Origin: Streptomyces huasconensis | Lineage (GTDB): Bacteria; Actinomycetota; Actinomycetes; Streptomycetales; Streptomycetaceae | Direction: 5' to 3' | NCBI GenBank assembly: GCA_004010275.1 | Contig: RBWT01000001.1 | Coordinates: 1 to 64,000 of the forward strand | Length of the DNA: 64,000 bases | Part shown: piece after piece, positions 8,410 through 22,574 of the stretch | How positions within the stretch are numbered: the first letter of the stretch is position 1 | Layout: each line of letters begins with the position of its first letter | Notes under the pieces: model-generated | Seen by the model: the letters and a program-made list of their open reading frames with translations, nothing else | Database searches by the model: none | Told to the model about the DNA's origin: nothing | Program-made: the position numbers and the translations under genes

Positions 8410-9013
8410 CTAAGGGTGCCCACTCGCACCCTCCACCCGTTGGAGCAGACCCCACGTGAACTCCGCGACGCACGGCCGCCGTTCACCGCTCCCGTCCGGC
8501 GCGGTGAACGCCAGGCGCCACCGCGTCGGCGCCGTGCCCTCCATGGGCCGGGCCGGGGCGAAGGCCCGCGCGGCCTCGTCGACCGTGCACGACCAGGGGG
8601 CCAGATCGTCGACCGTACGCAACTCCGGCCCCGCCACCCCCGGTGCGCGCACCAGCCACTCGTTCCACACCGCCCCGTTCGGCGCGCGCAGCACCTCGAA
8701 GCGCAGATCCGGCCAGAGCGGCACCGGCCAGAGCATGGCCTCGCACTCCAGGTCGCCGATCTGTCGGCGGGCGGTCGACTCGGGGGCGCCGAGGACCGAG
8801 CGGTAGCGCGCCGCGGCACCCCGCGAGCGCGCCCCCCCGCGCCATCGCCTGCCAGCGGCGGTTGGCCTCCCGCATCTGGGCGAGGGAGGTGCCCAGTTCG
8901 CGGCGGGCGTCCTCCACGAGACCGGGGTTGTGGTCGGCCATGCGGCGCAGCAGGACCAGCTGGAAGTCCAGCGGGGTGAACGGGGCGGAGGGCGAGGAGA
9001 CGCTAGCGGGCAT
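8410..9013 (-). CDS. Conserved hypothetical protein, last gene of the surface-glycan operon
   Basis: About 200 residues with the frame change near 8835 repaired. The start is ATG at 9013, overlapping the FkbM gene by 11 bases. The N-terminal third is helical (FTPLDFQLVLLRRMADHNPG and a following Gln/Arg-rich stretch). The C-terminal two thirds is rich in Trp (AMLWPVPLWPDLRFEV, APWSCTVDEAARAF, TRWRLAFTAPDGSG), which suggests a beta-rich ligand-binding fold. There is no signal peptide or membrane segment. I do not recognise the family. Position and overlap imply that it serves the same pathway as the upstream methyltransferases and transferases. Confidence 0.65.
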
Positions 9014-9805
9014 GCGCCCCATCGTCGCGCACCGCGAACGCACCCGGGCGGCGCCCTTCCGGGAGGAACAGCACCGAGTTGACGTACCGGGGGCGGCGGG
9101 GCGTGAGCACCCGGCGCAGCAGGCCCTGCGAGACGACGTACGCCGTGTCCTCCTGGTGCGCCTCCAGGTCGAAGGCGCCCAGCGGCAGCCACGTGTCGCC
9201 CGGCAGGACCCAGCCCCGGTAGCCGTGGTGGCGGGTGAGCAGGTCCACGATGGGGGCGATCGGCTGGATGCGGGCCTCCAGCTCGATGAAGAGCGCCGGA
9301 CGGTCACGGGCGATCAGCTCGCGCGCGCCGCGCAGCACCGGTAACTCGTTGCCGTCCACGTCGATCTTGACGAAGCCGACGTCACGCAGGCCGAGCCCGT
9401 CCAGGGTCAGGCACGGCACGTCGACGGCGGTGGCGTGGATGTCGCGGCGGACCAGGGACGACACGCCGCGCCGGCCTTCGTCCCCGGGCGGCAGCCAGAG
9501 CCGGGCCGTGCCCCGGTGGTCCGTCACCGGCGCCGTGGACGACGCGGACGTTGCCGGGCGTGCTCGCGGCGAGCAGCCGGGCGAGGCGGGGCACCGGCTC
9601 GACGGCCACCACGCGGCGGCCCGCCCGGCGAGGCGGCGCGACCACGGGCCGTACCAGCCGCCGACGACCACGGCGTGCCGCAGTCCGGCGGGCACAGGTC
9701 GCCGAGACGGGCCAACTCCGGTTCGAAGCGCGGGTAGACGAGCCGGGCCAGGGAGGCGATGAGACGGTCGGGGACATAGGGCGCGAGGCGCGCGGCGAGC
9801 GTCAT
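9003..9805 (-). CDS. FkbM-family methyltransferase (frame changes)
   Basis: SAM-dependent O-methyltransferase of the FkbM family, which methylates hydroxyls on sugars, lipids or polyketides in the cytosol. The family hallmark is visible as FVKIDVDGNELPVLRGA, followed by ALFIELEARIQP; the SAM-binding region is VVVGGWYGPWSRRLA and VVAVEPVPRLARLLAA. The start is ATG at 9805 and the product begins MTLAARLAPYVPDRL. The frame changes near 9690, 9615 and 9545 and is clean to the stop at 9003. Length is about 267 residues, normal for the family. It lies 14 bases after the Trm112-like gene and overlaps the next gene. The acceptor is unknown; the surrounding genes suggest a surface sugar. Confidence 0.78.
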
Positions 9806-9819
9806 GGGCGGCCTCCCCG

Positions 9820-10068
9820 TCACGGGGATATTCGCTTGAGCAGCTGCTCGTGCTCGTCCTCCGGGACCTGCTCGCCGGAGGAGGGCAGCAGCTGCGGGAT
9901 GCCGTCGATCACCGGATAGCGGCGGCGCAGCCGCGGGTTGTAGAGCGCCTCTTCCAGTACGAGGGAACCCTCCTGCGAGGTGACGGGCTCGTCCGGGGTG
10001 AGCAGGTGCAGCGGCCCCTTGTCGAGCGGGCAGGCGAGGATCTTCAGCAGCGGGTCTTCGGGGTTCAT
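9820..10068 (-). CDS. Trm112-like small zinc-ribbon-type protein
   Basis: An 82-residue protein of the Trm112/UPF0434 family (LLKILACPLDKGPL at the start, ALYNPRLRRRYPVIDGIPQ in the second half). Eukaryotic and archaeal Trm112 bind and activate several SAM methyltransferases; bacterial homologues are often encoded next to glycosyltransferases and methyltransferases. Only one of the usual zinc cysteines is visible (ACPLDK), so metal binding may be lost. It overlaps the transporter gene by four bases (ATGA at 10065-10068) and precedes the FkbM gene by 14 bases. I infer a partner role for the methyltransferases of this operon. Confidence 0.85.
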   Translation of the reverse strand: MNPEDPLLKILACPLDKGPLHLLTPDEPVTSQEGSLVLEEALYNPRLRRRYPVIDGIPQLLPSSGEQVPEDEHEQLLKRISP

Positions 10069-10985
10069 CCGCTTGTCAACTCCTTGGGCGGGGCGGTGGA
10101 CTGAGGTGGGGGCGCGTCATGCTTGGGCATGGCGAGCAGCACGGACACCGCGAGCACCGTGCCCGCGATGCGCAGGGCGAGGCGCACCGGGTCGTGCGGC
10201 AGGGCCTCGCCGAACGCCGGCGTGCCGAGGACCGCCGTGAACAGCGCCGTCACCGTCGTGCACACCGGGACGATCAGGGAGGCCCGGCAGCGCTGGAGCG
10301 CCGCCTGGGACATGACCAGGCCGAACGCCCCGGTGAACAGGAGCAGGTAGGGGTAGGGCGAGAGCAGCAGGTCGACGAGCGCACCGCCGAGGTTCCGGGT
10401 CGTCAGGTGGCTGGAGACACCCTTGATGGCCAGCGAGCTGACCCCGTACAGCAGCCCCACCGCGACGCCGTACTCGACGCCCGCCGACGGCATGCGGTGG
10501 CGGTGCTTCGCGCGGCGCTCCGCCGAGCCGTAGAGCCAGACCCCGGCGGCCAGCGAGGGCAGGCAGACGGTGAGGACCAGCGGCACGGGCGCGTCACGGC
10601 CCACCGTGTCGCTGTCCTCGCTGAGCGAGAGCACCACCATGAGCAGCGCGAGGAGGATCGCGCCGACCGCGTACCGCTCGCGCCCCGAGGTCCGCTCGCC
10701 GAGCAGCGCCGAGGACAGGAGCAGCAGCAGGACCAGGCCCGACACGAAGATGCCCTGGGCGGCGGCGATCGGCAGCGTCCGGTACACCATCAGCTGCGCG
10801 CCGAAGCCCGCCGCCAGAGCGAGCGAGCCGCCGAGCCACAGCGGGCTGCCGAGGACCTGCCGCAGCAGCCGCAGGGGCTTGCGGACGCTGACCGACGGCA
10901 TGGCGGTCAACGCCCGCTTCTCCAGGACGAATCCGGTGCTGTAGAGCAGGTTCGCGAGCAGCGCCGCGGCCACACCCCACCACAT
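10065..10985 (-). CDS. EamA/DMT-family membrane transporter
   Basis: A 306-residue integral membrane protein of the drug/metabolite transporter superfamily, with about ten transmembrane segments in two EamA-like halves (for example WWGVAAALLANLLYSTGF at the N-terminus and LVLLLLLSSALLGERTSG). Members move small solutes; some, such as ArnE/ArnF, flip lipid-linked sugars. It is the only polytopic transporter in this operon besides the AftD-like protein, so it may carry a lipid-linked intermediate or precursor across the membrane; this is inference. It starts three bases after the upstream methyltransferase stop and overlaps the Trm112-like gene by four bases. The reading frame is intact. Confidence 0.85.
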   Translation of the reverse strand: MWWGVAAALLANLLYSTGFVLEKRALTAMPSVSVRKPLRLLRQVLGSPLWLGGSLALAAGFGAQLMVYRTLPIAAAQGIFVSGLVLLLLLSSALLGERTSGRERYAVGAILLALLMVVLSLSEDSDTVGRDAPVPLVLTVCLPSLAAGVWLYGSAERRAKHRHRMPSAGVEYGVAVGLLYGVSSLAIKGVSSHLTTRNLGGALVDLLLSPYPYLLLFTGAFGLVMSQAALQRCRASLIVPVCTTVTALFTAVLGTPAFGEALPHDPVRLALRIAGTVLAVSVLLAMPKHDAPPPQSTAPPKELTSG

Positions 10986-10988
10986 GGG

Positions 10989-11727
10989 ACTCAGGCCTTT
11001 CGGGCGTGCAGCAGCAGGATCGAGGCGGCGCTCGGGACGGCGCAGGCGAGCCGGTCCAGGGCGCGCAGCGGGCGGGCACGCCGTGGAAGGGCGCGCCCGA
11101 CAGGCCCACGACCCGGAAGCCGCTCGCCGCGACGAACTCCCGCAGCGCGCGGGCGGTGTAGAGCCGCAGGTGGCCCACGACCTCCTTGCCGGGGCGGCCG
11201 TGGATGCCGCGCAGGCTCACCTCGGAGAAGACCGGCTGCACCCCGGCGAGCAGCAGCCCGCGGTTGTACCAGGCCGCCAGGTTGGGGGTGGACAGCATGA
11301 GGTGCCCGCCGGGCCTGAGGACCCTCCGCAGCTCGTCCAGCGCGCTGTCCGGGTCCACGAGGTGCTCGATGACCTCGCTGAACAGGACGGCGTCGGCCGC
11401 GCCGTCCGCGAACGGCAGTCCGCCGTCAGTGAGTTCACCCCGTACGACGTACGGCAGGTGGGCGTGGGCGCGCTTCAGGGCGTCCTGCGACCAGTCCACG
11501 CCGATCACCCGGTGGCCCGCGAGCAGCGGCGCGGCGGTCGCGGCGGCCGTGCCGTCGCCGCAGCCGATGTCCAGGACGGTGGCGGTGCGGGAGGTGGCCG
11601 GGCCGAGCGCGGCGGCGAGGATACGGGCCTGGCGCAGGCTGCGGGCGTCGCCCGACGCCACCGGGACGGCCGGGTTCTCGTAGAAGTCGCGGAGCCCGGC
11701 GGGCCGCCTGCCGGTCGCGGTGGTCAC
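10989..11727 (-). CDS. Class I SAM-dependent methyltransferase
   Basis: A roughly 245-residue Rossmann-fold methyltransferase. SAM-binding motif I is VLDIGCGDGTAAATA (about residues 50-64), motif II is HRVIGVDWSQDALKRA, and the acidic motif with catalytic-region signature is LFSEVIEHLVDPD, followed by LRPGGHLMLSTPN. The profile is that of methyltransferases acting on small molecules or glycolipids (type 11). One frame change near 11085 affects the last 30 residues; repaired, the product ends LLLHARKA at 10989. It overlaps the acyltransferase gene by four bases (11724-11727) and lies three bases before the transporter gene, so it is co-translated. The acceptor is unknown. Confidence 0.84.
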
Positions 11728-13100
11728 TTCGGCCCCTCCTCGGTCCCGTCGGTCACGGTCTGCTCCGTCGCGTGGAGGTAGTGCTCGAACAGCTCCCGCA
11801 GATGCGCCCCGTCACCCTGGCCGAGCAGCGTCTTCGACCAGCGCAGCGCGAGGTGCAGCCGGCCCGCGGTGGACGCCGTGGTCACGGTCAGGCCGCGCGG
11901 CAGGCGGGCCGGGGCGGAGAACCACACGGCATGCGCGCGGCCGGCGTCACCGAAGTCCAGGGCGTACGGGATGCGGCCGATGTTGCTCAGCAGCGTCGTC
12001 GACGTCCAGGGCGCGGCGGCCCGGCGCAGCCCGCGGGTGACGGCCGCCCTGAGCGTCACCGGCAGCACCGGCGCGGTCAACAGTGCGGCGCCGCGCCCCA
12101 GTTGGGGCCGGTCCAGGGCCTTCAGCGCGCGGGTGCGGTCGGAGGTGCGCCGCAGCAGCGCGCCGATGGCCTCCGGGGTCCAGTCGCGGTGCGCCAACTC
12201 CGCCGCGCTGAACGGCACTTCGACGAGCCGGGTGCCGTTGCCGATCGGCATGGTCGCGTCGCGGGGGCGGTCGTCCACCGGCATCGTGATGCGCAGGGGC
12301 TTCGGCCGCGCGCCGTGCTCGCGGTTCCAGTGCGTGAGCATCAGCGCCGTCGCCACCATGAGCTGGTCGTTCACGGTGAACGGCGAGCCCTTGGGGCGGC
12401 GCGGCACGGGCGCTCCGCGACCAGCATGCCGTTGCCGGTCGAGGGCTCCGGCGCGCCCCGGGCGACCCTGGCGGGCGGCGCCCAGCGGCGGCGGCGTCGG
12501 CGGCGGCGCGGAGCGGCCCGGCGCTCTCGGGCGTACGGGTGGGCGGCGCGGCCGGGGAGTTGACCCGGCCGCGTGCAGCTCGGCGGCCGTCGCGAGGACG
12601 CGCAGGCAGGCCGGGCCGTCCAGGGCAGTGTGGTTGATGGTCAGGAAGAGGACCGCGCCCGGTTCTTCGCCCGGCGGCGTCCCGGGGCCGGGCTCGGCCG
12701 CCACGACCTCCAGACGGATGGGCGGGGAGGCGACAGCGGCGGCGCCTCGGCCAGTGCCCGCTCGCGGGCCCGCTCCAGGGCGTCCGGTTCCGGCGCCGGG
12801 AAGGTCACCACCTCGGTGTCCGGCCCGTCGGTGAGCTCCCACTCGTAACGGCGGCGGTACCAGGGCCCCTTGGCCTCCCGCATCAGGATGCGGGGATGCG
12901 CGGCGCAGGGCCTCGGTGAACGCGACCCTCAGCCGGTCGGGGTCCGGGGTGCCCGGCAGGTGCACCTCGATGTGCACGGTCTCCGGTTCCTCCTCCTGGA
13001 GGCAGTGCCGGGAGACCTCGTCGACGACGGGGAACGGCACGCGCGCGGGCGGCCGGCCGGGGCCGTCCGCACGCCGTGCCGGGTGTTCCAGTGCGGTCAT
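11724..13100 (-). CDS. Condensation-domain-like acyltransferase (HxxxDG), frame changes
   Basis: About 455 residues related to the condensation-domain/acyltransferase superfamily (wax ester synthase, PapA-type enzymes), which move acyl groups onto hydroxyls or amines. The active-site signature HxxxDG is present as NHTALDGPACLRV; the supporting structural Asn/Asp region appears as DRPRDATMPIGNGTRLVEV, and the C-terminal segment STTLLSNIGRIPY is typical. The frame changes near 12890, 12740 and 12420-12560; between these the homologous reading continues in another frame. The start is ATG at 13100, overlapping the AftD-like gene stop (13097). In this operon it probably acylates a glycan or glycolipid. 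It could instead be an unrelated HxxxD acyltransferase. Confidence 0.75.
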   Translation of the reverse strand: MTALEHPARRADGPGRPPARVPFPVVDEVSRHCLQEEEPETVHIEVHLPGTPDPDRLRVAFTEALRRASPHPDAGGQGALVPPPLRVGAHRRAGHRGGDLPGAGTGRPGAGPRAGTGRGAAAVASPPIRLEVVAAEPGPGTPPGEEPGAVLFLTINHTALDGPACLRVLATAAELHAAGSTPRPRRPPVRPRAPGRSAPPPTPPPLGAARQGRPGRAGALDRQRHAGRGAPVPRRPKGSPFTVNDQLMVATALMLTHWNREHGARPKPLRITMPVDDRPRDATMPIGNGTRLVEVPFSAAELAHRDWTPEAIGALLRRTSDRTRALKALDRPQLGRGAALLTAPVLPVTLRAAVTRGLRRAAAPWTSTTLLSNIGRIPYALDFGDAGRAHAVWFSAPARLPRGLTVTTASTAGRLHLALRWSKTLLGQGDGAHLRELFEHYLHATEQTVTDGTEEGPK

Positions 13101-16100
13101 CGCTGCGTGCCTTCTCCTGTGCCGGGTGTGCGCTTGTGCCGGGGGAAGCGGACCGTGGCGTCGCTCTGCGGAGCGGGACCGGAGTCGGGGCCGGGACCGG
13201 CCGGCTCGGGTCCTCGGGCCGAGACCGTCGGGCCCACCCCGGGATGCGACGGGGCCGGTGGGGTCTCCGGCGCGCCGCCGTCAGGCCCGCGCTCGGCAGC
13301 GGGGACGCCGACGGGTGGGCCGGCTGCCCCGGAGCGGGGCCATCGCCCGGTCCGTACACCAACGTATCGGCGGTGTCCTGCCGCGCCTGCCGCTCCTTCA
13401 CGGTCACCAGGGCCGCGAACAGAGCGATGAGCGCGAGGAGTTGGGCCAGCGGGCCGAACGCGCCCCGGTCGGCGCTGACCGCCTCCCCGGCCCCGGTCGC
13501 CGCCACGACACCCGCGCCCGCCATCGCCACGAAGGCGACCGGCACCAGCAGCGTGTGACGCCACCAGGCCAGCAGGGCCAGCGCCGGGACGAGCAGGGCG
13601 AACGGGCCCGCGATCACCGCGGCCACCAGCGTCAGCGCCACCGTGCCGAGGACCGGGCCGGGCGCGGGCGGCGCGGGCACCAGGGGGTCGGTGCCGCGCT
13701 CACGGCGCCACAGGATGACGAGACCGATCAGCGCGAGGACACCGGCCCCGGCCAGGATCAGGCCGATCTCGTAGGTCCGCGACGGCTCGTAGGTGAGCTT
13801 GACCGTGCCGCCTTCGCCCTCGGGCACGAGCCAGCCCTGCTGCCACCCGTCCAGCCGCAGCGGGCTCAGCTCCTTGCCGTCCAGGGTCGCCTTCCAGCCG
13901 TCGTTCACGTTCTCGTACGTCGTGAGGTACGAGGCCGCTCCCGCGCCGACGCTCACCTCGCGGCGGTCGCCCAGCCAGTCCTTGACCTTCAGCTCACGGG
14001 CGGTCTCGTCCACCGCGCCCGGGGTGCCCCGGGTGAGGGAGGCGTCCATGACGGCGAGGGGACCCGCGTCGCCGGTCTCCACGCTGTGCGCTCCCGCGTC
14101 GAGCCGGACCGCCGTGTCCTTCTTGCCCCGCTGGCAGAGGCCGACCTCGACCGGCCTGCGCTCGGTGAGGTCCGCGACCTTGCCCTTGGCGCTCGTCTCG
14201 TACAGCTCCCCGCCGATCGACATCACCGGGCCCTGGCCGCAGGGGAGCGAGAAGCGCTCCGAGGCGTCGGGCTGCGGGGTGCGGTACCTGTCGAGGGCCG
14301 GGACATAGACCTCCGTGAGGCCGACCGGGAGCCTGAGGTCGTCGTCCGCCACCGGGTTGTGGACCGTCAGCGGAGCCGTCTTCGTGATAGTGATGTCCAT
14401 CTGGTCCGTGGTGATCGGGGCGAAGCGGGCGTTGCCGTGCTCGTCCACGCCCGCGGTGGCCGCGCCGTCCGGCGAGCTGATCTCGATCTTCTCGGGCCGG
14501 GTCGACAGGCCGCCCGCGCCGGGCAGCACGATCTCGCCCACCGGCTGCTTGTCCGGCCACTTGAGGCGGATCACCGGGCGGTTGTCCGTGCCCGCGATCC
14601 ACGCCGTCGTCAGATCGCCGTCGGTGAGGTTGCGCGGCGACAGACCGTTGCCGAGCCGGGCCGTGGAGTCCGCGGTGGCGGTGATCCGCGGCTTCTGCTC
14701 CGGGGCCACCTTGTACAGCAGCTCGTCCAGTTCGGGGCCCGGCACGGCCACCGCGCTCGCCTTCACCTCGTACGCGCCCTCACCCGTCGTCGTGAAGCGG
14801 CGGTGCAGGCCCGATTCGGTGTTGACCGGCGAGAGGGCGCTCGGGTCGGAGGAGCGGTGCAGCGAGTACGTCGTCGCGTCGGCGCCGGCCGCCTTCCGCG
14901 CGTCCTTGGGCAGCTGGAGCAGCTTGGTGACGCGCACGCCGGGGATGCTGATCTCCGAGAAGCCCGCGCCGGTCAGGCCGGGGCGCGCCTCCTGGGTCTC
15001 CACGATCGTGATCTTGATCCACTCCGTGGTGCCCGGACGGGCCTTGACGCGCTGCGCCATGCCGTTGGGCTGGAGCGTGCTGGTGACGGAGCCCCGCTCG
15101 GTCTCCACGCGCACCCGCGTCGGCGCCGACCGCACACTGTTCTGCGGCAGCGGTGTCACGCGGAAGGACGAGGGGACCGTGGTCGCGGAGTCGAACTCGG
15201 CCTTGATCCACTCGCCGCCCGACGAGCCGGAGCCGCCCTCCGCCCAGGCGGTGGCCGGGTTGCCGTCGAAGGCGTTCACCGGGTCGTACTGCGGCAGGTG
15301 GAAGAGCCAGCTGCCGTAGGAGGAGGCCGTCACCGACTTGGCGCCGCGCAGCTCCGCCGTGGTCTGGTGCTCCACGCCGTCGGTCGGCAGGATCTGGTGC
15401 GGCTTCTTGCCCGGGTCCTGGGCCGCGTCGGGCGCGTTCCGCTCGTCGGGGCCGTAGGTGTACGACGTGTTGGTGTTGACCAGGCCGAAGCGGGTGTCGG
15501 CGCGGCGCAGCCCGTCACCGACCGCCAGCAGGCCCGGCGTCCCGACGCCCGGGTGGTTGTCGCCGGTCAGCACGGCCGGGCGGTCGCGCATCGCCGGGTC
15601 GGCGGAGAGCGGCAGCAGCGACTCGGGGCCGCCGCTGACCACCGCCGTGTTGGAGACCGGCTTCAGGCCCGCCTGGCCGGGGCGCTCGGCGCCCTCGCCG
15701 GGGGCGTAGACCTCCACCGCGCGGTGGCGCGGGTAGAGCCCCTCCACCTGGAGCGGGGTGTCGTCGGGTATGACGCCGCCGGTGGTCTTCGGGCCGAAGC
15801 CGGTGACGCGGCGGAAGCCGGACTCCTCCAGGGTGCGCTTGACCGTCGCGGTCGGGACGTGGCCGACCTGGTCGGGGTCGAGGTCGTTGCGCACGACGAC
15901 GTAGTACAGCCCGGCGCGGGTCAAGTAGTCGCTCAGGCCCGGCACTTCGCCGCCGGTCATCAGCGCCTGCTCGACCGCGTCCATCGCCCGGCGGTTGCCC
16001 GGCGTGCCGAACGGCACGTAGTCGCGCTGCGCCCAGCGGGACTCCGCGAGCACGTCGAGGGGCTGGTCGATGGGGGAGCCCCAGGTGTAGATGCCGTGCG

Positions 16101-17507
16101 CGGTCGCCGGGACGACGAGGGCACGCGAGTCGGGGGAGTACTTCTCCAGCCAGTCGGCCGTCGCCTGCCAGTACGTCGGCAGCTTCTGGAACGAACCCGG
16201 CTGCAGGATCGAGCCATTGAGGTACGGCCACGCGAGCCCCGGCAGCACCAGGACCGCCGCGATCAGCGTCGCGTACCGCCTGCCGCGCACCGGCCGCGCC
16301 CCGCGCGCCTGCGCGGCGACACCGACGAGGTGCATCAGGCCGAGGACGAGGGCCAGCGCGAGGCCCGCCTGGAACTTGTAGATGTTGCGGAAGGGGACGA
16401 GCCCGCCGTTCAGCCACGACTGGACGGTCTCGTGGAAGGGTGCGCCGAACGCGCCGCCGTACCCGGCCAGCGTGATCAGGGCGACCGACAGGACGGTCAG
16501 GACCAGCCAGCGCCGCTCGGGCAGATCGCGCCGGGCGAGCCCCGCGAGACCGAGGGCGGCCGCGAACGCCGAGCAGACGACGGTCACGACGGCCGTCGCC
16601 ACCGTCCAGCCGGCCGGCAGCCAGGCCTCGCCGAAGTACAGGTACGCGACCCAGTTCCCGGCGCCGCGCAGCGTCTCGGTGGCCGACATGGTGCCGGTGG
16701 TGGTCGCCGAGTTCTCCACGTACGGAAGGAAGTTCTCGCCGTGGATGCCCAGCATGAGCAGCGGCACGATCCACCAGGCGGTGGCGAGGATGACGCCCGG
16801 CACCCACCAGGTGATCAGCTTCCGCTTGCGCGGGCCGTTCGGGCGGGAGAGAAGATAGAGGGCCACCGGCAGCAGGGACGCGAGCGTCGCCGCCGCGTTC
16901 ACGCCGCCCATGAACGGGATGATCAGCGCCGAGCGGCACGCGGCGAGGCGCGCCGCTGAGCCGCGGGTCGGCCAGCGGCAGCAGCACCCACGGCAGGACC
17001 GCGCCGGGCAGCGCCGCCGCCGACGTCGAGCCGACGACCACGGTGAACGTCGGCCACAGCGCGTACGCCACCGCGCCGAGGAGCCGGCTGTGACGGCTGC
17101 CGATGCCGAGGCGCTCGGCCAGCTCGCAGGGCGCCCCAGAAGGCCGCCGCCACGATGAGCGACAGCCACAGCCGCTCGGCCAGCCAGACCGGCAGCTGCA
17201 CCAGGTCGGCCAGGCCGTAGAACGGCAGCATCGGGAACGCGTAGCCGACGTACTGGTCCTGGATGCCGCCGAAGCCGCCGCGGTCGTGCCACAGCTGGCC
17301 GAGGTCGGAGAGGAACTGCCAGGGGTCGACGGTGACACCGAGCTTGGTGTCGAACGTCATCCGCCCGGGTCGCACCGCGAGGAACGCCACGAACACCACG
17401 GCCCAGAACCCCAGCAGCCAGCGCCGCGAGCGCGGCCCCCGCGAGGGTTCAGGGGCGTCGGTCGTGGGTCTTACGGCGGCCGGGGGTGGGGCCTGGACCG
17501 TGGTCAT
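13097..17507 (-). CDS. AftD-like alpha-(1->3)-arabinofuranosyltransferase (DUF3367), three frame changes
   Basis: A very large membrane glycosyltransferase of about 1,470 residues resembling mycobacterial AftD, which adds arabinofuranose from decaprenyl-phospho-arabinose outside the membrane. The N-terminal third is polytopic (RRWLLGFWAVVFVAFLAV, SLLPVALYLLSR, WWVPGVILATAWWIVPLL). The conserved early loop has the catalytic-type acidic context KLGVTVDPWQFLSDLGQLW. The central and C-terminal region is extracytoplasmic and includes two discoidin-like carbohydrate-binding segments (NPATAWAEGG, coding near 15240; LTDGDLTTAWIAGTDNRP, near 14600). A final membrane-helix bundle and a Pro-rich tail follow. 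Frame changes occur near 17130, 16960 and about 13310. The start is ATG at 17507 in an ATGA overlap with the upstream methyltransferase. Streptomyces lacks mycolyl-arabinogalactan, so the acceptor here is unknown. Confidence 0.85.
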
Positions 17508-18231
17508 GGACACCGCCTGAGTATGAGGAGGAGGTTCCAGGTCGCGATCTCGCGCACACCCGGGACCTTGGTGATCGCCCCGGCCAGGAACGGCCAGTAG
17601 CGTGAGCGCGCCGACACCACGGCCACGTCGTCGCGGGCCCGCACCTGGCGCAGGGTGGCTCCGACGTGGTGTGCGAAGAGGTTCTCGCCGAGCGTGTGCT
17701 TCGCGGCTTTTCCGGTACGTCGTTCATAGCGGGCGCGGGCCCGGTCGCGCCCAGGTAGTGCCAGGGCGCCCACTCGTGACCGCCCCAGGGGGAGAGCCAG
17801 TTGGTGAACGAGACATAGATCAGCCCGCCGGGGCGGGTGACCCGGACCATCTCGCTCAGGAAGGTCTGCGGGTCGTCGACGTGCTCCAGGACGTTCGAGG
17901 AGAACGTGACGTCGGCGACGGCGTCCGCCAGCGGCAGCAGATAGCCGTCGGCGACGACCGAGCCCTCGGGGGGCTTGGTGCCCGCCGCGGTCATCTCGGC
18001 GAGGTCCGGCTCGAAGAGGTGACACTGCGCGCCGCGCCGCCGGAACTCCTCGGTGAAGTAGCCGCCTCCGCCGCCGATGTCGACGACGACGCGGTCCTTC
18101 ACCGGGACGTACGCCTCCACCTGGTCGGCGGCGTCCTTGGCGAGGAGGGTGTAGCAGCGCTCGGGCTCCTGCTGTTCCCGCAGGAACGCCCGGAAGAGCG
18201 TGACGGAGCGACGCAGGGACGGGTCTTTCAC
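17504..18231 (-). CDS. Class I SAM-dependent methyltransferase (frame change)
   Basis: About 242 residues. SAM-binding motif I is VVVDIGGGGGYFTEEFRRR, then HLFEPDLAEM, and the family signature SSNVLEHVDDPQTFLSEM is followed by TRPGGLIYVSFTNW and a GGHEW motif. This is the profile of methyltransferases coupled to AftD-type loci in actinobacteria. The start is GTG at 18231, immediately after the TAA of the glycosyltransferase gene. A frame change near 17725 separates the last 70 residues, which continue to the stop at 17504, overlapping the AftD-like start (ATGA). The acceptor is unknown but is probably the glycolipid made by the upstream glycosyltransferase. Confidence 0.83.
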
Positions 18232-19413
18232 TTATGTCCCCTGCGGGGTCGGGGGCCCGGTGGGCGCGTGGTGGGCGGCGACCGCCTCGGCCGCCACCGC
18301 CTGGAACTGCCGGACCGTGTTGCCCCAGCGGAACTGCGCGGCCCGCTCACCGGCGGCCTTGCCCAGCGCCCAGCGGCGCTCGCCGCTGAGCGCCAGCGTG
18401 CACCAGGCGGCGGCGAAGGAACTCTCGCCGCGCGCGAGGAGGCCGGTCACGCCGTCCTCGATGGAGTCGCGGACCCCGGGGACGTCGAAGCCGACCGAGG
18501 GCGTCGAGCGGGTCGCCGCCTCGGTGATGACCAGGCCCCAGCCCTCCACGGCCGAGGGATGCAGCAGCATCCAGGCCTCGCAGAGCAGCCGGTGCTTCTC
18601 CGCCTCGGAGACATGGCCCCTGAACTCCACGCCGGGACCGGCGAGCTGCTCCAGGCGGGCCCGCTCGGGGCCGTCACCCACGATCACGAGCCGGCCGCCG
18701 GTGACGGGCCGCACCCGCTCCCACAGCCGCAGGAGGAGATCGATCCGCTTGTACTCGACGAGGCGCCCCATCGCGAGGAACAGCGGCTCGTCGGAGCGGG
18801 CGTGCAGCGGGCCCGGCTCCTCCACCCCGTTGTGCACGATGCGGATGCGCTCGCGGTCCACGCCGATCGCGCGCAGGGCCGTGGCCGTCGACGGCGAGAC
18901 GGCCACCAGCAGGTTGCCGCGCTGCGCGCCCGACAGGGCCCAGTGCTCCAGCCTGCGCCCGAGCCGGGCCGCGGGGGCGAGCGCGCCTTGGAAGCGCATC
19001 CCCCACAGATCGGTGTGGACGTGGTTGACCAGGCACAGGGTCGGCCCGCGGTGCCACAGCGGCGCCAGGTACGGCATGCCGTTGCAGACCTCCACCAGCA
19101 GGTCGCAGTCGCCGACCTGCCGGGTGAAGGCGGAGCGCGCCCGCAGGTAGTGACCGAGGTCGCCACCGGCGGAGACCACGCGGTAGTCGCGGTAGGCCGC
19201 GGGCCCGCCGCACAGCAGCGTGACCTGGTGACCCAGCTTGCTGAGCCCGTCGGCCAGCCGGTCGACGAGCAGTTCGGAGCCCCCCGCGGCCGGATTGCCG
19301 AGGTCGCGGTGGGCGAGGAAGACGATCCGGCGCGGCTGTGGGGGAGGCGCCGGGAGGCGCTGCGCGTGCCGTGGGGAGGCCTCGCGCAGCGAGGACGGTA
19401 CGTGCTGGGGCAT
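18232..19413 (-). CDS. Glycosyltransferase family 4, first gene of the surface-glycan operon
   Basis: A 393-residue GT-B fold retaining glycosyltransferase. The N-terminal acceptor domain has FLAHRDLGNPAAGGSELLVD with the family GG motif; the donor domain has LFLAMGRLVEYKRIDLLL, RLVIVGDGPER and the EX7E-type site in HPSAVEGWGLVITEAATRST. It is cytosolic or membrane-associated and transfers a sugar from a nucleotide donor to a lipid or sugar acceptor. The frame is intact. Its TAA is followed directly by the GTG of the next gene. A G-rich repeat region of about 350 bases lies upstream and must hold the operon promoter. Donor and acceptor cannot be read from the sequence. Confidence 0.87.
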   Translation of the reverse strand: MPQHVPSSLREASPRHAQRLPAPPPQPRRIVFLAHRDLGNPAAGGSELLVDRLADGLSKLGHQVTLLCGGPAAYRDYRVVSAGGDLGHYLRARSAFTRQVGDCDLLVEVCNGMPYLAPLWHRGPTLCLVNHVHTDLWGMRFQGALAPAARLGRRLEHWALSGAQRGNLLVAVSPSTATALRAIGVDRERIRIVHNGVEEPGPLHARSDEPLFLAMGRLVEYKRIDLLLRLWERVRPVTGGRLVIVGDGPERARLEQLAGPGVEFRGHVSEAEKHRLLCEAWMLLHPSAVEGWGLVITEAATRSTPSVGFDVPGVRDSIEDGVTGLLARGESSFAAAWCTLALSGERRWALGKAAGERAAQFRWGNTVRQFQAVAAEAVAAHHAPTGPPTPQGT

Positions 19414-19769: not shown

Positions 19770-20825
19770 TCACATCGTGCTGGACTGCAGGGTTGTCGTG
19801 GACGTCCCAGGATGCGGACTCCCGGGCTCCGCCGATCCGCCGTCCCCGCCGGGGCCGTTCCCATGGCCTCCGGGGCCCTCCACGCCGTCGTCCCGGCGTC
19901 CTCGTACGACCCAGACGGCACCGGCCAGGGCGAGCACCGCGCCGAGTACCCCGGTGACCACCGGAAGAGTCTCACCGACCAGCTTCAGCCGGTCGCTGTC
20001 GTCCTTGGCCAGCTTGACCTGCGCCTTCTGCGTGGCCGGGGTGAAGGCGATGCGCTCGCTGTCGAGCAGCACCCTCGCGTCCTTGTCCGAGCCGGGCGCG
20101 CGCAGCGTCTTGCGGGGCCCGATCGCGGCGTAGATGATCCGGCCGGTGCGCCGGTCGGCGACGAGTTCGATGCCGTGGTTGGCGTAGTACTCGTCGGCGA
20201 TCACCTGGCTCTTCTTCGGCTGGCCGACCAGCCGCCCCGGCACCTGACGCGTGCCGGTCTTGTGGGGCTTCACCGTCGCCGTGAACCGGTAGCCCTCGTA
20301 TCCCTGGATCTTCTTCGTGCCCCGGTAGGTGAGCGGCACCGTCGCGCCGAGCGTGTTGTCCCACCAGCGGTAGGAGCGCTTCTCCACGTCGAAGGGGAAC
20401 TTCAGGTACGCCTCCCCCTCGAAGTACGGCTCCTCGTCGCAGCAGTGCACCGGCTTGTTCGTCCTGCGGTCGGTGACCCAGCGTTCCTTGGTCCACTGGA
20501 GCGCGTCGTGCGGGGTGGTGGCGGGCAGCGACGCGTCCGGGTCGACGGAGGTCACCACGTCCCAGACGGCCCGCCCGCTCTCCTCGCTGTCGGCGACGTC
20601 GCCGCGGACCTGGCGGGTGATCGTGAGGTTCTTGTCATGGACCGTCTTGATCTTCTTGGTGTCGAAGTAGCTGCCCTTCCCCTTGAAAACCGTGATGGTG
20701 TCGATATCTGTCGGCGTGCGTTTCGCACGGGGCTCGACGTACCAGGCCAGCATCGGTGCCAGGACCAGAAGAAACGCGCCGAGGCCTAGGAGGATCAGGG
20801 AAAAGGGCGAGGTGGTGCGGCGCAT
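19770..20825 (-). CDS. DUF3068 (PorA-family-like) membrane-anchored protein
   Basis: A 351-residue protein with one N-terminal membrane helix (FSLILLGLGAFLLVLAPMLA, residues 8-27), a large extracytoplasmic beta-rich domain and one C-terminal helix (VVTGVLGAVLALAGAVWVV, near residue 298), followed by a Gly/Ser/Pro-rich tail. The pattern fits DUF3068, found across actinobacteria. An unusual Cys pair (HCCDEEPYF, about residue 128) lies in the outer domain. The start is ATG at 20825 with AGGAG 8-12 bases upstream. Its function is unknown, but DUF3068 genes occur near AftD-type glycosyltransferase loci, as here. It shares a divergent promoter region with the DUF2613 gene. Confidence 0.85.
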   Translation of the reverse strand: MRRTTSPFSLILLGLGAFLLVLAPMLAWYVEPRAKRTPTDIDTITVFKGKGSYFDTKKIKTVHDKNLTITRQVRGDVADSEESGRAVWDVVTSVDPDASLPATTPHDALQWTKERWVTDRRTNKPVHCCDEEPYFEGEAYLKFPFDVEKRSYRWWDNTLGATVPLTYRGTKKIQGYEGYRFTATVKPHKTGTRQVPGRLVGQPKKSQVIADEYYANHGIELVADRRTGRIIYAAIGPRKTLRAPGSDKDARVLLDSERIAFTPATQKAQVKLAKDDSDRLKLVGETLPVVTGVLGAVLALAGAVWVVRGRRDDGVEGPGGHGNGPGGDGGSAEPGSPHPGTSTTTLQSSTM

Positions 20826-20900
20826 GGGGGCACTCCTGGGCTAAGGGCGGGAGAAGTGTTACCGAGCCGTACGTATGGGCCGGGAACCGTAGGCGCACCC

Positions 20901-20915
20901 TTGACTAGGTGTCAA
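20901..20915. promoter_or_regulatory. Inverted repeat in the DUF3068/DUF2613 divergent promoter
   Basis: TTGAC-TAGGT-GTCAA is a perfect 5-base inverted repeat with a 5-base spacer, midway between the divergent starts (20825 and 21055). TTGACT also resembles a -35 element for the plus-strand gene. Confidence 0.35.
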
Positions 20916-21054
20916 TGGATGCAGAGACTGGGGCCCAGCCGGACGGGGCCGGCTGGGACTGTACGACACAGACTCCGCGGCGCCACCGCGCGCCGTGGCC
21001 CGGACTGTGTGCCCGGGGTGGGGACGACCTCCGACAGAGAGGCTGGCCCTCGCC

Positions 21055-21207
21055 ATGCACCGACTGCTCGCCGCATCACTCACCGTCGCCGCCGGGGCGC
21101 TGCTCGCCGTGGGCGCCGCCTTCGGCATCGTCGCGCTCCTGGACGCCACACCGGAGCAGCCCAACACACCGCTGGTGCACTACGACGCGTCGTCGCGGGG
21201 GCAGTGA
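21055..21207 (+). CDS. DUF2613 small membrane protein
   Basis: A 50-residue protein with a single membrane helix (LLAASLTVAAGALLAVGAAF, residues 4-23) and a short polar tail (DATPEQPNTPLVHYD). This matches DUF2613, a small actinobacterial family; from memory one member, Rv0236A of M. tuberculosis, is encoded beside aftD. The start is ATG at 21055, with AGAGAGG 11-17 bases upstream. A longer upstream reading adds only unlikely sequence. The PucR regulator gene begins six bases after its stop, so the two are probably cotranscribed. Its function is unknown; a link to the AftD-like protein is suggested by position. Confidence 0.75.
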   Translation: MHRLLAASLTVAAGALLAVGAAFGIVALLDATPEQPNTPLVHYDASSRGQ

Positions 21208-21213
21208 GCCACC

Positions 21214-22574
21214 GTGGCCGTGACCGACACCCAGCCCACCGGGGCCGCCGAGCCGGGCCAGAGCGCCGCGCCGTCGCGCTCCGCCTGGCGGGACGTGCCG
21301 CCCCGGCAGGTGCGGCGGTTCGCCGCGCTCGCCCTGGAGGAGGTCCCCGCCCTCGCCCAGGACATCCTGCGCGAGATCCGCGCCGAGTACCCGGGCCTGC
21401 CCGTGGTCCTCGACGACTCCGGCGAGCCCATGGCGCTGGTCGGCATCCGCCGCGCCCTGGAGGGCTTCGTCCAGCAGCTGGCGTCCCAGGAGGGGCGGCC
21501 CCGCTACCACCTGGAGGTCTTCCAGGAATTCGGCCGCGGCGAGGGCCTGCACGGCCGCAGCCTCGACTCGCTCCAGGCGATCTACCGACTCGGCGTACGC
21601 CTCGCCTGGCGCCGCCTCGCCGAGATCGGCCAGCAGATCGAGATCCCGCCCCCGGCCATGTACGAACTCGCCGAGTCCGGCTTCGAGTACCTCGACGGCC
21701 TGGTCGACCAGTCCGTACGCGGCTACGCCGAGGCCGCCGCCCGCGTGGCCGGCGAGCGGCTGCGGCTGCAACGCAAGCTCATGGAACTGCTGCTCTCGAG
21801 CGCCGCGCCGACCCCGGCGGCACGGCGCACGCCACCGGCACGGGCCGCGGTCGGTCGTCCGGCCCGCCCGCCCCTCCGGCAACGCCCTCGGGGAGCGCGC
21901 CGCACGCGTCGGCTGGCAGCTGCCCGAGCGGGTCGCCGTGGGCGTCCTGCTGCGGCCGGCCCCGGAGGCCGTGGCACCCGCCGTCGGGGAGGGCCGTCCT
22001 CCTCGACATGGAGGCCGAACAGCCCCGCATGGTCGTGCCCGACCCCGAGGCGGCCGGACGCCCCGAACTGCTGCGCCGCGCCATGACCGGCTGGTCCGGG
22101 GCGATCGGCCCGCCCGTGCCGCTCGCCGATGCCGCGAAGTCGCTGCGCTGGGCGGAGGCGGCGGTGGGGCTCATGGAGCGCGGTCTGCTGCCCGCCGGTG
22201 AGGTCCTGCACTGCACCGAGCACACCGAGGCCCTGGTGCTCCTGCAGCCCGAGGAGCTGATCGAGGACCTGGCCCGCCGCTGCCTCGCCCCGCTGGAGCA
22301 CTGCGGGCCCGCCCACGGCCGCCGCCTTGCCGAGACCCTCCTCGCCTGGCTGGAGACCCGCGGCGGCGCCCCCGAGGTCGCGGCCCGCCTCGGTGTCCAC
22401 CCCCAGACGGTCCGCTACCGCCTGCGGCAGATAAGGGAGCTGTGGGGCGACGAGGTGGACGACCCCGATCGCCGCTTCGAGCTGGAACTGGTCCTGCGCG
22501 CCCGGCGGTTGAGGGGACTGCTCGGCCGCGCCCAGGCCCCCGAGCCGGGCCGGGTCAGCAGCACTGCCAGGTGA
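21214..22574 (+). CDS. PucR-type helix-turn-helix regulator (frame changes)
   Basis: About 450 residues. The N-terminal domain (RRFAALALEEVPALAQDILRE and HGRSLDSLQAIYRLGVRLA) is a helical regulatory domain of the RsbRD/PucR-like type. The C-terminal domain carries the PucR helix-turn-helix (EVAARLGVHPQTVRYRLRQI, near residue 405), the same type as in FasR later in the window. The start is GTG at 21214. The frame changes near 21810, 21880 and 21990; the reading between these (GWQLPERVAVGVLLRPAPEA) continues the protein. The stop at 22574 lies in the first copy of a 24-base tandem duplication. The target is unknown; the divergent DUF3068 gene and the glycan operon beyond are candidates. Confidence 0.78.

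What the first reader, a model, noticed from the sequence alone, without database searches (positions are those of the whole stretch)
8410..19413. Nine-gene translationally coupled operon for an undescribed surface glycoconjugate
Seen: consecutive minus-strand genes overlap or abut (TAA|GTG at 18232-18231; ATGA at 17504-17507, 13097-13100, 11724-11727 and 10065-10068; gaps of 3 and 14 bases; overlap at 9003-9013). Products: GT4 glycosyltransferase, SAM methyltransferase, AftD-like transferase, HxxxDG acyltransferase, second methyltransferase, EamA transporter, Trm112-like protein, FkbM methyltransferase, unknown protein. Inference: a dedicated pathway that builds, methylates, acylates, exports and arabinosylates a lipid-linked glycan. 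I know no named product for this combination in Streptomyces.
Basis: partly seen in the sequence, partly recalled or inferred. Interest (0 to 1): 0.85.

Follow-up and report, generated by a model that had tools for sequence, protein, structure and literature searches.

The report
Streptomyces cousin of mycobacterial envelope locus
A ten-gene Streptomyces cluster turns out to be a rebuilt relative of a gene cluster that mycobacteria and corynebacteria use to finish and export envelope glycolipids and lipoglycans, which is surprising because Streptomyces are not known to make those molecules.

Summary
The cluster is real; in relatives its order is almost invariant, with 4-base stop/start overlaps usual at six junctions. 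In this assembly six of ten genes carry frame breaks, most likely sequencing errors. PgfA, GT4, methyltransferase 1 and the AftD-like protein are homologous to the aftD-tmaT-lmcA/pgfA-mmpA-GT-mtrP locus of Corynebacteriales: in all 11 aftD-positive same-class genomes of three other families, the best GT4 and methyltransferase hits lie together within 22 kb of aftD. No mmpA was found in 19 Streptomyces; their cluster has instead a PapA/WS-DGAT-fold acyltransferase, a second methyltransferase, a DMT-like transporter, a Trm112-like protein and usually FkbM and an unknown protein. The acyltransferase occurs in 17 of 17 aftD-positive and 0 of 14 aftD-negative Streptomyces, so both halves behave as one unit. 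"Arabinosylates" is unproven: this genome has DprE1, DprE2 and DPPR synthase, but 28 of 61 aftD-positive genomes lack that synthase and 14 of those 28 also lack DprE1. Best reading: a new, mycolate-free variant of a known envelope-glycoconjugate module; product unknown.

The parts
20856..22574 (+). divergent PucR-type transcriptional regulator (frame-broken here; homologous stretch 21274-22487)
   Evidence: Pfam HTH_30 E 9e-20; homologue divergent upstream of GT4 in 86 of 87 Streptomyces loci with room
19770..20825 (-).
   Evidence: PF11271 E 9e-80; NF053601 PgfA equivalog 326.4 bits at this place, cut-off 160; profile A3 hits PDB 7n3v LmcA E 3e-9
18232..19413 (-). GT4 glycosyltransferase, homologue of the GT in the Corynebacteriales locus
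   Evidence: Pfam GT4/GT1 families; best GT4 hit in 11 of 11 same-class genomes of other families lies beside the MT1 hit near aftD
17504..18231 (-). class I SAM methyltransferase 1, MtrP-like by position and homology (one frame break)
   Evidence: Methyltransf_11 E 3e-18; syntenic best hits 180-278 bits, runner-up at most 56
13097..17507 (-). AftD-like GT-C glycosyltransferase with F5/8-type C and CBM_AftD domains (frame breaks near 17.1 and 16.96 kb, and one near 13.2 kb inferred from GC phase and the end junction)
   Evidence: PF11847 547.9 bits, PF24607 CBM_AftD 57.7 bits; PDB 6w98/6wbx AftD E about 4e-112; DTK motif in 14 of 16 sequences and an invariant Glu
11724..13100 (-). HxxxDG acyltransferase of the condensation/PapA/WS-DGAT fold (at least two frame changes, near 12.9 kb and between 12.73 and 12.4 kb)
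   Evidence: HTALDG-type motif and SNxGR in the alignment; TIGR02946 E 1e-6, below cut-off; fold matches to condensation domains, WS/DGAT 6chj and PapA5 1q9j from a low-confidence model
10991..11727 (-). class I SAM methyltransferase 2 (one frame break near 11.07 kb)
   Evidence: Methyltransf_23 E 1e-21; relative aligned to 10994
10065..10985 (-). DMT/NIPA-like multi-pass transporter, candidate flippase
   Evidence: NF038012 E 2e-9 and PF05653 E 7e-4 for the L022 homologue, both below cut-off
9820..10068 (-). Trm112-like small protein
   Evidence: ORF; PF03966 E 7e-13 for the L022 homologue
9003..9805 (-). FkbM-family methyltransferase (one frame break near 9.67 kb)
   Evidence: PF05050 E 2.5e-12; TIGR01444 over cut-off in the L022 homologue
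8410..9013 (-). unknown protein of about 200 aa, last gene (one frame break near 8.85 kb)
   Evidence: no Pfam or NCBIfam match for the L022 homologue; confident model (pLDDT 86) without a good PDB fold match

Best explanation
The cluster is a Streptomycetaceae version of the actinobacterial aftD-pgfA/lmcA-GT4-mtrP envelope locus and builds, modifies and exports a lipid-linked glycan. Proposed order of work: the GT4 adds a sugar to a membrane lipid acceptor in the cytosol; methyltransferases 1, 2 and FkbM methylate it (Trm112-like protein as accessory); the PapA/WS-DGAT-type enzyme acylates it, taking the place that TmaT has in C. glutamicum; the DMT-like protein carries the product or a polyprenyl-phosphate sugar donor across the membrane; outside, the AftD-like GT-C enzyme adds sugars from a polyprenyl-phosphate donor while its carbohydrate-binding modules hold the glycan; PgfA binds the lipid part and hands it on. 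Shown here: homology, gene order, co-inheritance, fold class, kept GT-C motifs. Inferred: every biochemical step, the sugar identities and the direction of transport.
For: PgfA equivalog and LmcA structure hit. AftD structure hit and kept motifs. Best GT4 and MT1 hits adjacent to each other and within 21.4 kb of aftD in all 11 aftD-positive same-class genomes of other families found, runner-ups far weaker. PgfA in the same neighbourhood in 6 of 6 such genomes read. Named Tsukamurella locus with aftD, acyltransferase, DUF3068, MmpA-like, GT4 and methyltransferase. C. glutamicum AftD, TmaT, two membrane proteins, a putative GT and MtrP listed as cg3161-cg3168 (passage of PMC7775120). Published roles: LmcA/PgfA in LM/LAM or TMM handling, TmaT/MtrP/MmpA in TMCM acetylation and export (passages). 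Streptomyces halves co-inherited: AcT in 17 of 17 aftD-positive and 0 of 14 aftD-negative genomes; PgfA in 61 of 61 aftD-positive against 53 of 89 aftD-negative. Embleya carries nine of the ten genes in order.
Against: No biochemical or expression data. PgfA is separated by more than 100 bases in 83 of 83 loci and is missing from the cluster in 4 of 66 loci with enough flank (L115, L130, L133, L144). FkbM is missing in 5 of 68 and the last gene in 4 of 61, so these look accessory. MmpA was not found in 19 of 19 Streptomyces (only the best 56 first-look candidates per genome were scored). TmaT-type acyltransferases were not searched elsewhere in Streptomyces. The DMT assignment rests on matches below curated cut-offs and the AcT fold on a model with mean pLDDT 58. 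In the midpoint-rooted GT4 tree the Streptomyces sequences group with the single sequence from another class, so simple vertical descent of GT4 is not shown; the PgfA cluster copies group with support 0.25 only. In four genomes of other classes there is no clear MT1 orthologue (best 39-44 bits).
Confidence: 0.6

Rival explanations
1. One reading: a decaprenyl-phosphoarabinose-dependent pathway that arabinosylates a lipid-linked glycan, i.e. a LAM/arabinan-like polymer.
For: AftD homology; own genome and G009 hold DPPR synthase, DprE1 and DprE2 together; DPPR synthase is commoner with aftD: 33 of 61 against 24 of 89, Fisher p 0.001, not corrected for kinship.
Against: 28 of 61 aftD-positive Streptomyces lack the DPPR synthase over cut-off; of these 28, 11 have DprE1 over cut-off, 3 lie just under it (472-498 bits, cut-off 500) and 14 have no DprE1 hit above 77 bits, 7 of the 14 being single-contig genomes of 99-100% completeness. 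24 aftD-negative genomes have the synthase, so it has other uses. DprE1 was not searched in aftD-negative genomes, and divergent donor enzymes below cut-off are not excluded.
Confidence: 0.25
2. A specialised-metabolite cluster (methylated, acylated sugar compound) rather than an envelope pathway.
For: Patchy in the genus, 61 of 150; AcT fold shared with NRPS condensation domains; several methyltransferases.
Against: Homology of four genes to an envelope locus; an extracytoplasmic GT-C enzyme with carbohydrate-binding modules and PgfA are not usual secondary-metabolite genes; no PKS or NRPS synthase among the cluster genes.
Confidence: 0.08
3. The pathway is decaying in this strain: the frame breaks are true mutations.
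For: Frame changes in six of ten genes.
Against: Breaks also in unrelated or neighbouring genes of the same assembly (HrpB-type helicase; PucR gene); pieces on both sides of the breaks keep 57-89% identity to relatives; relatives intact.
Confidence: 0.07

Closest known systems
aftD-tmaT-lmcA/pgfA-mmpA-GT-mtrP locus of Corynebacteriales (C. glutamicum cg3161-cg3168; M. tuberculosis Rv0226c-Rv0227c by the papers, the other Rv numbers recalled)
   Same: PgfA/LmcA, GT4, MtrP-type methyltransferase and AftD homologues in one neighbourhood; also an acyltransferase in the set
   Different: no MmpA found in Streptomyces; a condensation/PapA-fold acyltransferase where two such loci were shown to hold Acyl_transf_3; further genes added; single-strand, overlapping arrangement; hosts without mycolic acids or arabinogalactan (recalled); LM and LAM not reported in Streptomyces (PMC5982138 passage)
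Three-component extracytoplasmic pentofuranose addition (PMC11127046, passages) and mycobacterial DPA arabinosylation
   Same: GT-C enzyme with carbohydrate-binding module, a small membrane transporter, idea of a polyprenyl-phosphate donor
   Different: donor synthase not in the cluster and not found in many carriers; adds methylation and acylation
PapA / WS-DGAT acyltransferases
   Same: HxxxDG motif and fold class
   Different: below family cut-offs; no PDB sequence relative at E 0.01

Membership tests
PgfA/LmcA (NF053601, PF11271) | over the curated equivalog cut-off (160 bits) | tested here: met
   window copy 326.4 bits; L024 homologue 320.9
PgfA/LmcA (NF053601, PF11271) | acts in mycolate (TMM) or LM/LAM handling | not testable with these tools
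   published for M. smegmatis and C. glutamicum (passages); LM and LAM not reported in Streptomyces
AftD | GT-C_AftD plus CBM_AftD domains over cut-off | tested here: met
   window; L024
AftD | GT-C Asp motif and Glu kept | tested here: met
   DTK in 14 of 16 sequences (ETK in L082; L083 start called too late to show it), Glu265 (L022 numbering) invariant; which residues are catalytic is recalled
AftD | decaprenyl-phosphoarabinose donor available | tested here: inconclusive
   known genes present in the own genome; DPPR synthase and DprE1 both missing in 14 of 61 carriers
Corynebacteriales tmaT locus | GT4 and MtrP-type homologues beside aftD/pgfA | tested here: met
Corynebacteriales tmaT locus | MmpA (AftD-N-like) present | tested here: not met
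   0 of 19 Streptomyces; 6 of 6 other genomes, five of which supplied the profile
Corynebacteriales tmaT locus | Acyl_transf_3 acetyltransferase TmaT in the locus | tested here: not met
   the cluster acyltransferase is of another fold; other places in the genome not searched
Condensation/PapA/WS-DGAT acyltransferase superfamily | HxxxDG motif and fold | tested here: met
   model confidence low
Polycistronic operon | single transcript | not testable with these tools
   strand and overlaps support GT4 to the last gene; the PgfA-GT4 junction has a gap in 83 of 83

The most novel reading that the evidence does not exclude
The aftD-pgfA-GT4(-mtrP, -mmpA) module is an ancient, mycolate-independent actinobacterial pathway for an undescribed lipid-linked envelope glycan. 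Mycobacteria and corynebacteria later tied it to mycolate export and LM/LAM, while Streptomycetaceae dropped mmpA and re-equipped it with a new acyltransferase, methyltransferases and a transporter. Carriers of the module without mycolates (Nonomuraea: mmpA-GT4-aftD-pgfA on one strand; Embleya and Streptomyces) would then show the original function of PgfA and MmpA.
Probability: 0.45. Interest if true: 0.8.

Novelty: new variant of a known kind. Interest (0 to 1): 0.66.

Why it matters
PgfA/LmcA, MmpA and MtrP are known, in the papers seen here, through mycolate and lipoglycan phenotypes in Corynebacteriales, and these differ between species (PgfA in TMM transport in M. smegmatis, LM/LAM in C. 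glutamicum; passages). A homologous, compact cluster in a bacterium without mycolates lets their basic function be tested in easy, harmless hosts, and points to an undescribed envelope glycoconjugate in about 40% of sampled genomes of the genus (61 of 150 by the AftD domain). Searches of the held papers for Streptomyces with AftD and arabinofuranosyltransferase (3 papers), Streptomyces with PgfA (0) and two or more of Streptomyces, DUF3367, DUF3068, porin PorA family, arabinofuranosyltransferase (19 papers) listed no title describing the cluster (listings only; most subscription papers are not held).

Tried and rejected
Simple 'nine intact overlapping genes': rejected, six are frame-broken in this assembly. 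Pseudogene reading: held less likely (an HrpB-type helicase gene and the PucR gene are broken too; relatives intact). Obligatory arabinose donor by the known genes: rejected because. PF11271 as a true porin: not followed, since the NCBIfam equivalog and the LmcA structure fit a periplasmic lipid-handling protein. The second PgfA copy was examined for its neighbourhood in five genomes: it lies near polA, coaE, an S1-domain protein and an HrpB-type helicase; its direct neighbour in four of them carries a weak lytic-transglycosylase (SLT) domain, the only envelope link seen, so it gave little functional clue. Fold of the last gene: top PDB hit is a putative beta-lactamase-inhibitor-like protein (3d4e, E 6e-4, TM 0.27-0.32), too poor to name it. 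The AcT model is poor (pLDDT 58) and used for fold class only. Promoter/terminator scan uninformative. The AftD cryo-EM paper (PMC7263364) is not held; catalytic residue names are recalled. Partial C-terminal matches of 18-41 bits were not counted as carriers. First-look candidates were only partly scored (best 56 and 45 per genome).
Full report
What is there. The window is contig C111 of an 8.58-Mb, 467-contig genome. Minus-strand genes from 19413 to 8410 are coding by third-position GC. Six of the ten genes change frame in this assembly. An unrelated own-genome gene, an HrpB-type helicase, is split in the same way and ten relatives have open AftD frames, so I treat the breaks as assembly errors; this is not proven.

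Which genes. The PgfA assignment is an equivalog over cut-off (326 bits for the window copy, cut-off 160), and the profile hits the LmcA crystal structure 7n3v. The AftD-like protein hits solved mycobacterial AftD, 6w98 and 6wbx, at E about 4e-112. The acyltransferase has no PDB sequence relative at E 0.01, but its model, of low confidence (pLDDT 58), matches condensation domains, WS/DGAT and PapA5. A divergent PucR-type regulator precedes the cluster in 86 of 87 loci with room.

Conservation. Over 98 Streptomyces loci (at least three genomes twice) neighbour order holds nearly always: 62 of 66 loci with enough flank have the first eight genes in order, and 53 of 66 have all ten. The four failures of the eight-gene order (L115, L130, L133, L144) lack pgfA between regulator and GT4. 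FkbM is absent in 5 of 68 and the last gene in 4 of 61. Four-base overlaps at six junctions are the rule (359 of 395 junctions summed). PgfA-GT4 has a gap above 100 bases in 83 of 83. The AftD domain is in 61 of 150 sampled genomes of the genus; in the nearest set it is full-length in 11 of 25 same-genus genomes and in none of 16 genomes of other genera. Embleya, of the same family, has nine of the ten genes in order.

Two halves, one unit. The acyltransferase profile gives strong hits (265 bits or more) in 17 of 17 aftD-positive Streptomyces, none in 14 aftD-negative ones (best 22 bits) and none in 7 other genomes (best 32 bits). PgfA occurs in 61 of 61 aftD-positive and 53 of 89 aftD-negative genomes. 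Most carriers (49 of 61) show two PgfA matches. In the five genomes read, the second copy lies near polA, coaE, an S1-domain protein and an HrpB-type helicase; beside it in four of them is a protein with a weak lytic-transglycosylase domain.

Relation to the mycobacterial locus. Profiles of the Streptomyces GT4 and methyltransferase 1 were run over 15 whole genomes picked from the aftD-positive ones: all 11 of the same class but other families, and 4 of 29 of other classes. In all 11 the best methyltransferase hit (180-278 bits; next best at most 56) and best GT4 hit (169-237; next best at most 74) are adjacent to each other and lie within 21.4 kb of aftD. In the four more distant genomes GT4 is still within about 10 kb of aftD, but the methyltransferase has no clear orthologue (best 39-44 bits; one genome has a 35-bit hit beside GT4). 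PgfA lies in the same neighbourhood in six of six same-class genomes read. A protein of about 500-580 aa there, with no Pfam family in the two tested, is shared by all six. From position, length and membrane segments I call it MmpA, whose resemblance to the AftD N-terminus is reported in PMC8698533 (passages). Its profile hits once in 6 of 6 non-Streptomyces genomes, five of them its sources, and in 0 of 19 Streptomyces, 14 of which carry aftD. A named Tsukamurella record shows aftD, acyltransferase, DUF3068, MmpA-like, GT4 and methyltransferase within about 21 kb. A passage of PMC7775120 lists AftD, TmaT, two membrane proteins, a putative glycosyltransferase and MtrP as cg3161-cg3168 in C. 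glutamicum. Nonomuraea, not a mycolate maker as far as I recall, has mmpA-GT4-aftD-pgfA on one strand, with no MT1 hit at E 1e-4. Small trees place the Streptomyces GT4 and MT1 sequences together and join both Streptomyces PgfA types (support 1.0); the cluster PgfA copies alone have support 0.25, and midpoint rooting puts GT4 nearer the single sequence from another class.

What it probably does. In C. glutamicum and mycobacteria these proteins act in acetylation and export of trehalose mycolates (TmaT, MtrP, MmpA, PgfA) or in LM/LAM maturation (LmcA) (passages). PMC5982138 states that LM and LAM have not been reported in Streptomyces (passage). I infer that the module handles a lipid-linked glycan and that the Streptomyces version methylates, acylates, exports and further glycosylates it. 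The donor of the AftD-like step is open. The own genome holds DPPR synthase, DprE1 and a DprE2 homologue. But of 61 carriers 28 lack the synthase over cut-off, and among those 28, 14 have no DprE1 hit above 77 bits; 11 have DprE1 over cut-off and 3 just under it. Polyprenyl-phosphate mannose, known in S. coelicolor, is an alternative donor; this is inference.

Verdict. The finding is real and better than described: a new variant of a known actinobacterial envelope module. Its product is unknown. The claim of an unprecedented gene combination falls for the PgfA-GT4-methyltransferase-AftD part and, as far as the searches here go, stands for the added half.

Noticed in passing
L175 (G009), L176 (own genome, contig C455): DPPR synthase, DprE1 and DprE2 genes together in Streptomyces, a set for polyprenyl-phosphoarabinose; DPPR synthase over cut-off in 57 of 150 genomes of the genus.
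   Followed up: partly
L171-L174, L177 (own contig C39): A second PgfA homologue near polA, coaE, an S1-domain protein and an HrpB-type helicase; in four of the five its neighbour has a weak lytic-transglycosylase domain.
   Followed up: partly
L079 and L080 (G065), L081 (G120): G065 and G120 carry two full-length AftD genes each; the copies near a contig end (L079, L081) lack FkbM and the last gene. G001 has a second, partial AftD match.
   Followed up: no
L021:13830-15374, L023:5239-6795: The DMT-like protein is 514-518 aa here, with a C-terminal extension of about 200 aa of unknown nature.
   Followed up: no
L115, L130, L133, L144: PgfA is missing between the PucR-type regulator and GT4, while the rest of the cluster is kept.
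   Followed up: partly
L181:25314-26753 (Tsukamurella): A protein annotated as condensation-domain-containing lies directly after the MmpA-like gene; the Streptomyces acyltransferase profile did not hit it at E 1e-4.
   Followed up: no
window 21274-22487 and L177: Frame breaks are found in this assembly outside the ten genes too (PucR gene, HrpB-type helicase).
   Followed up: partly
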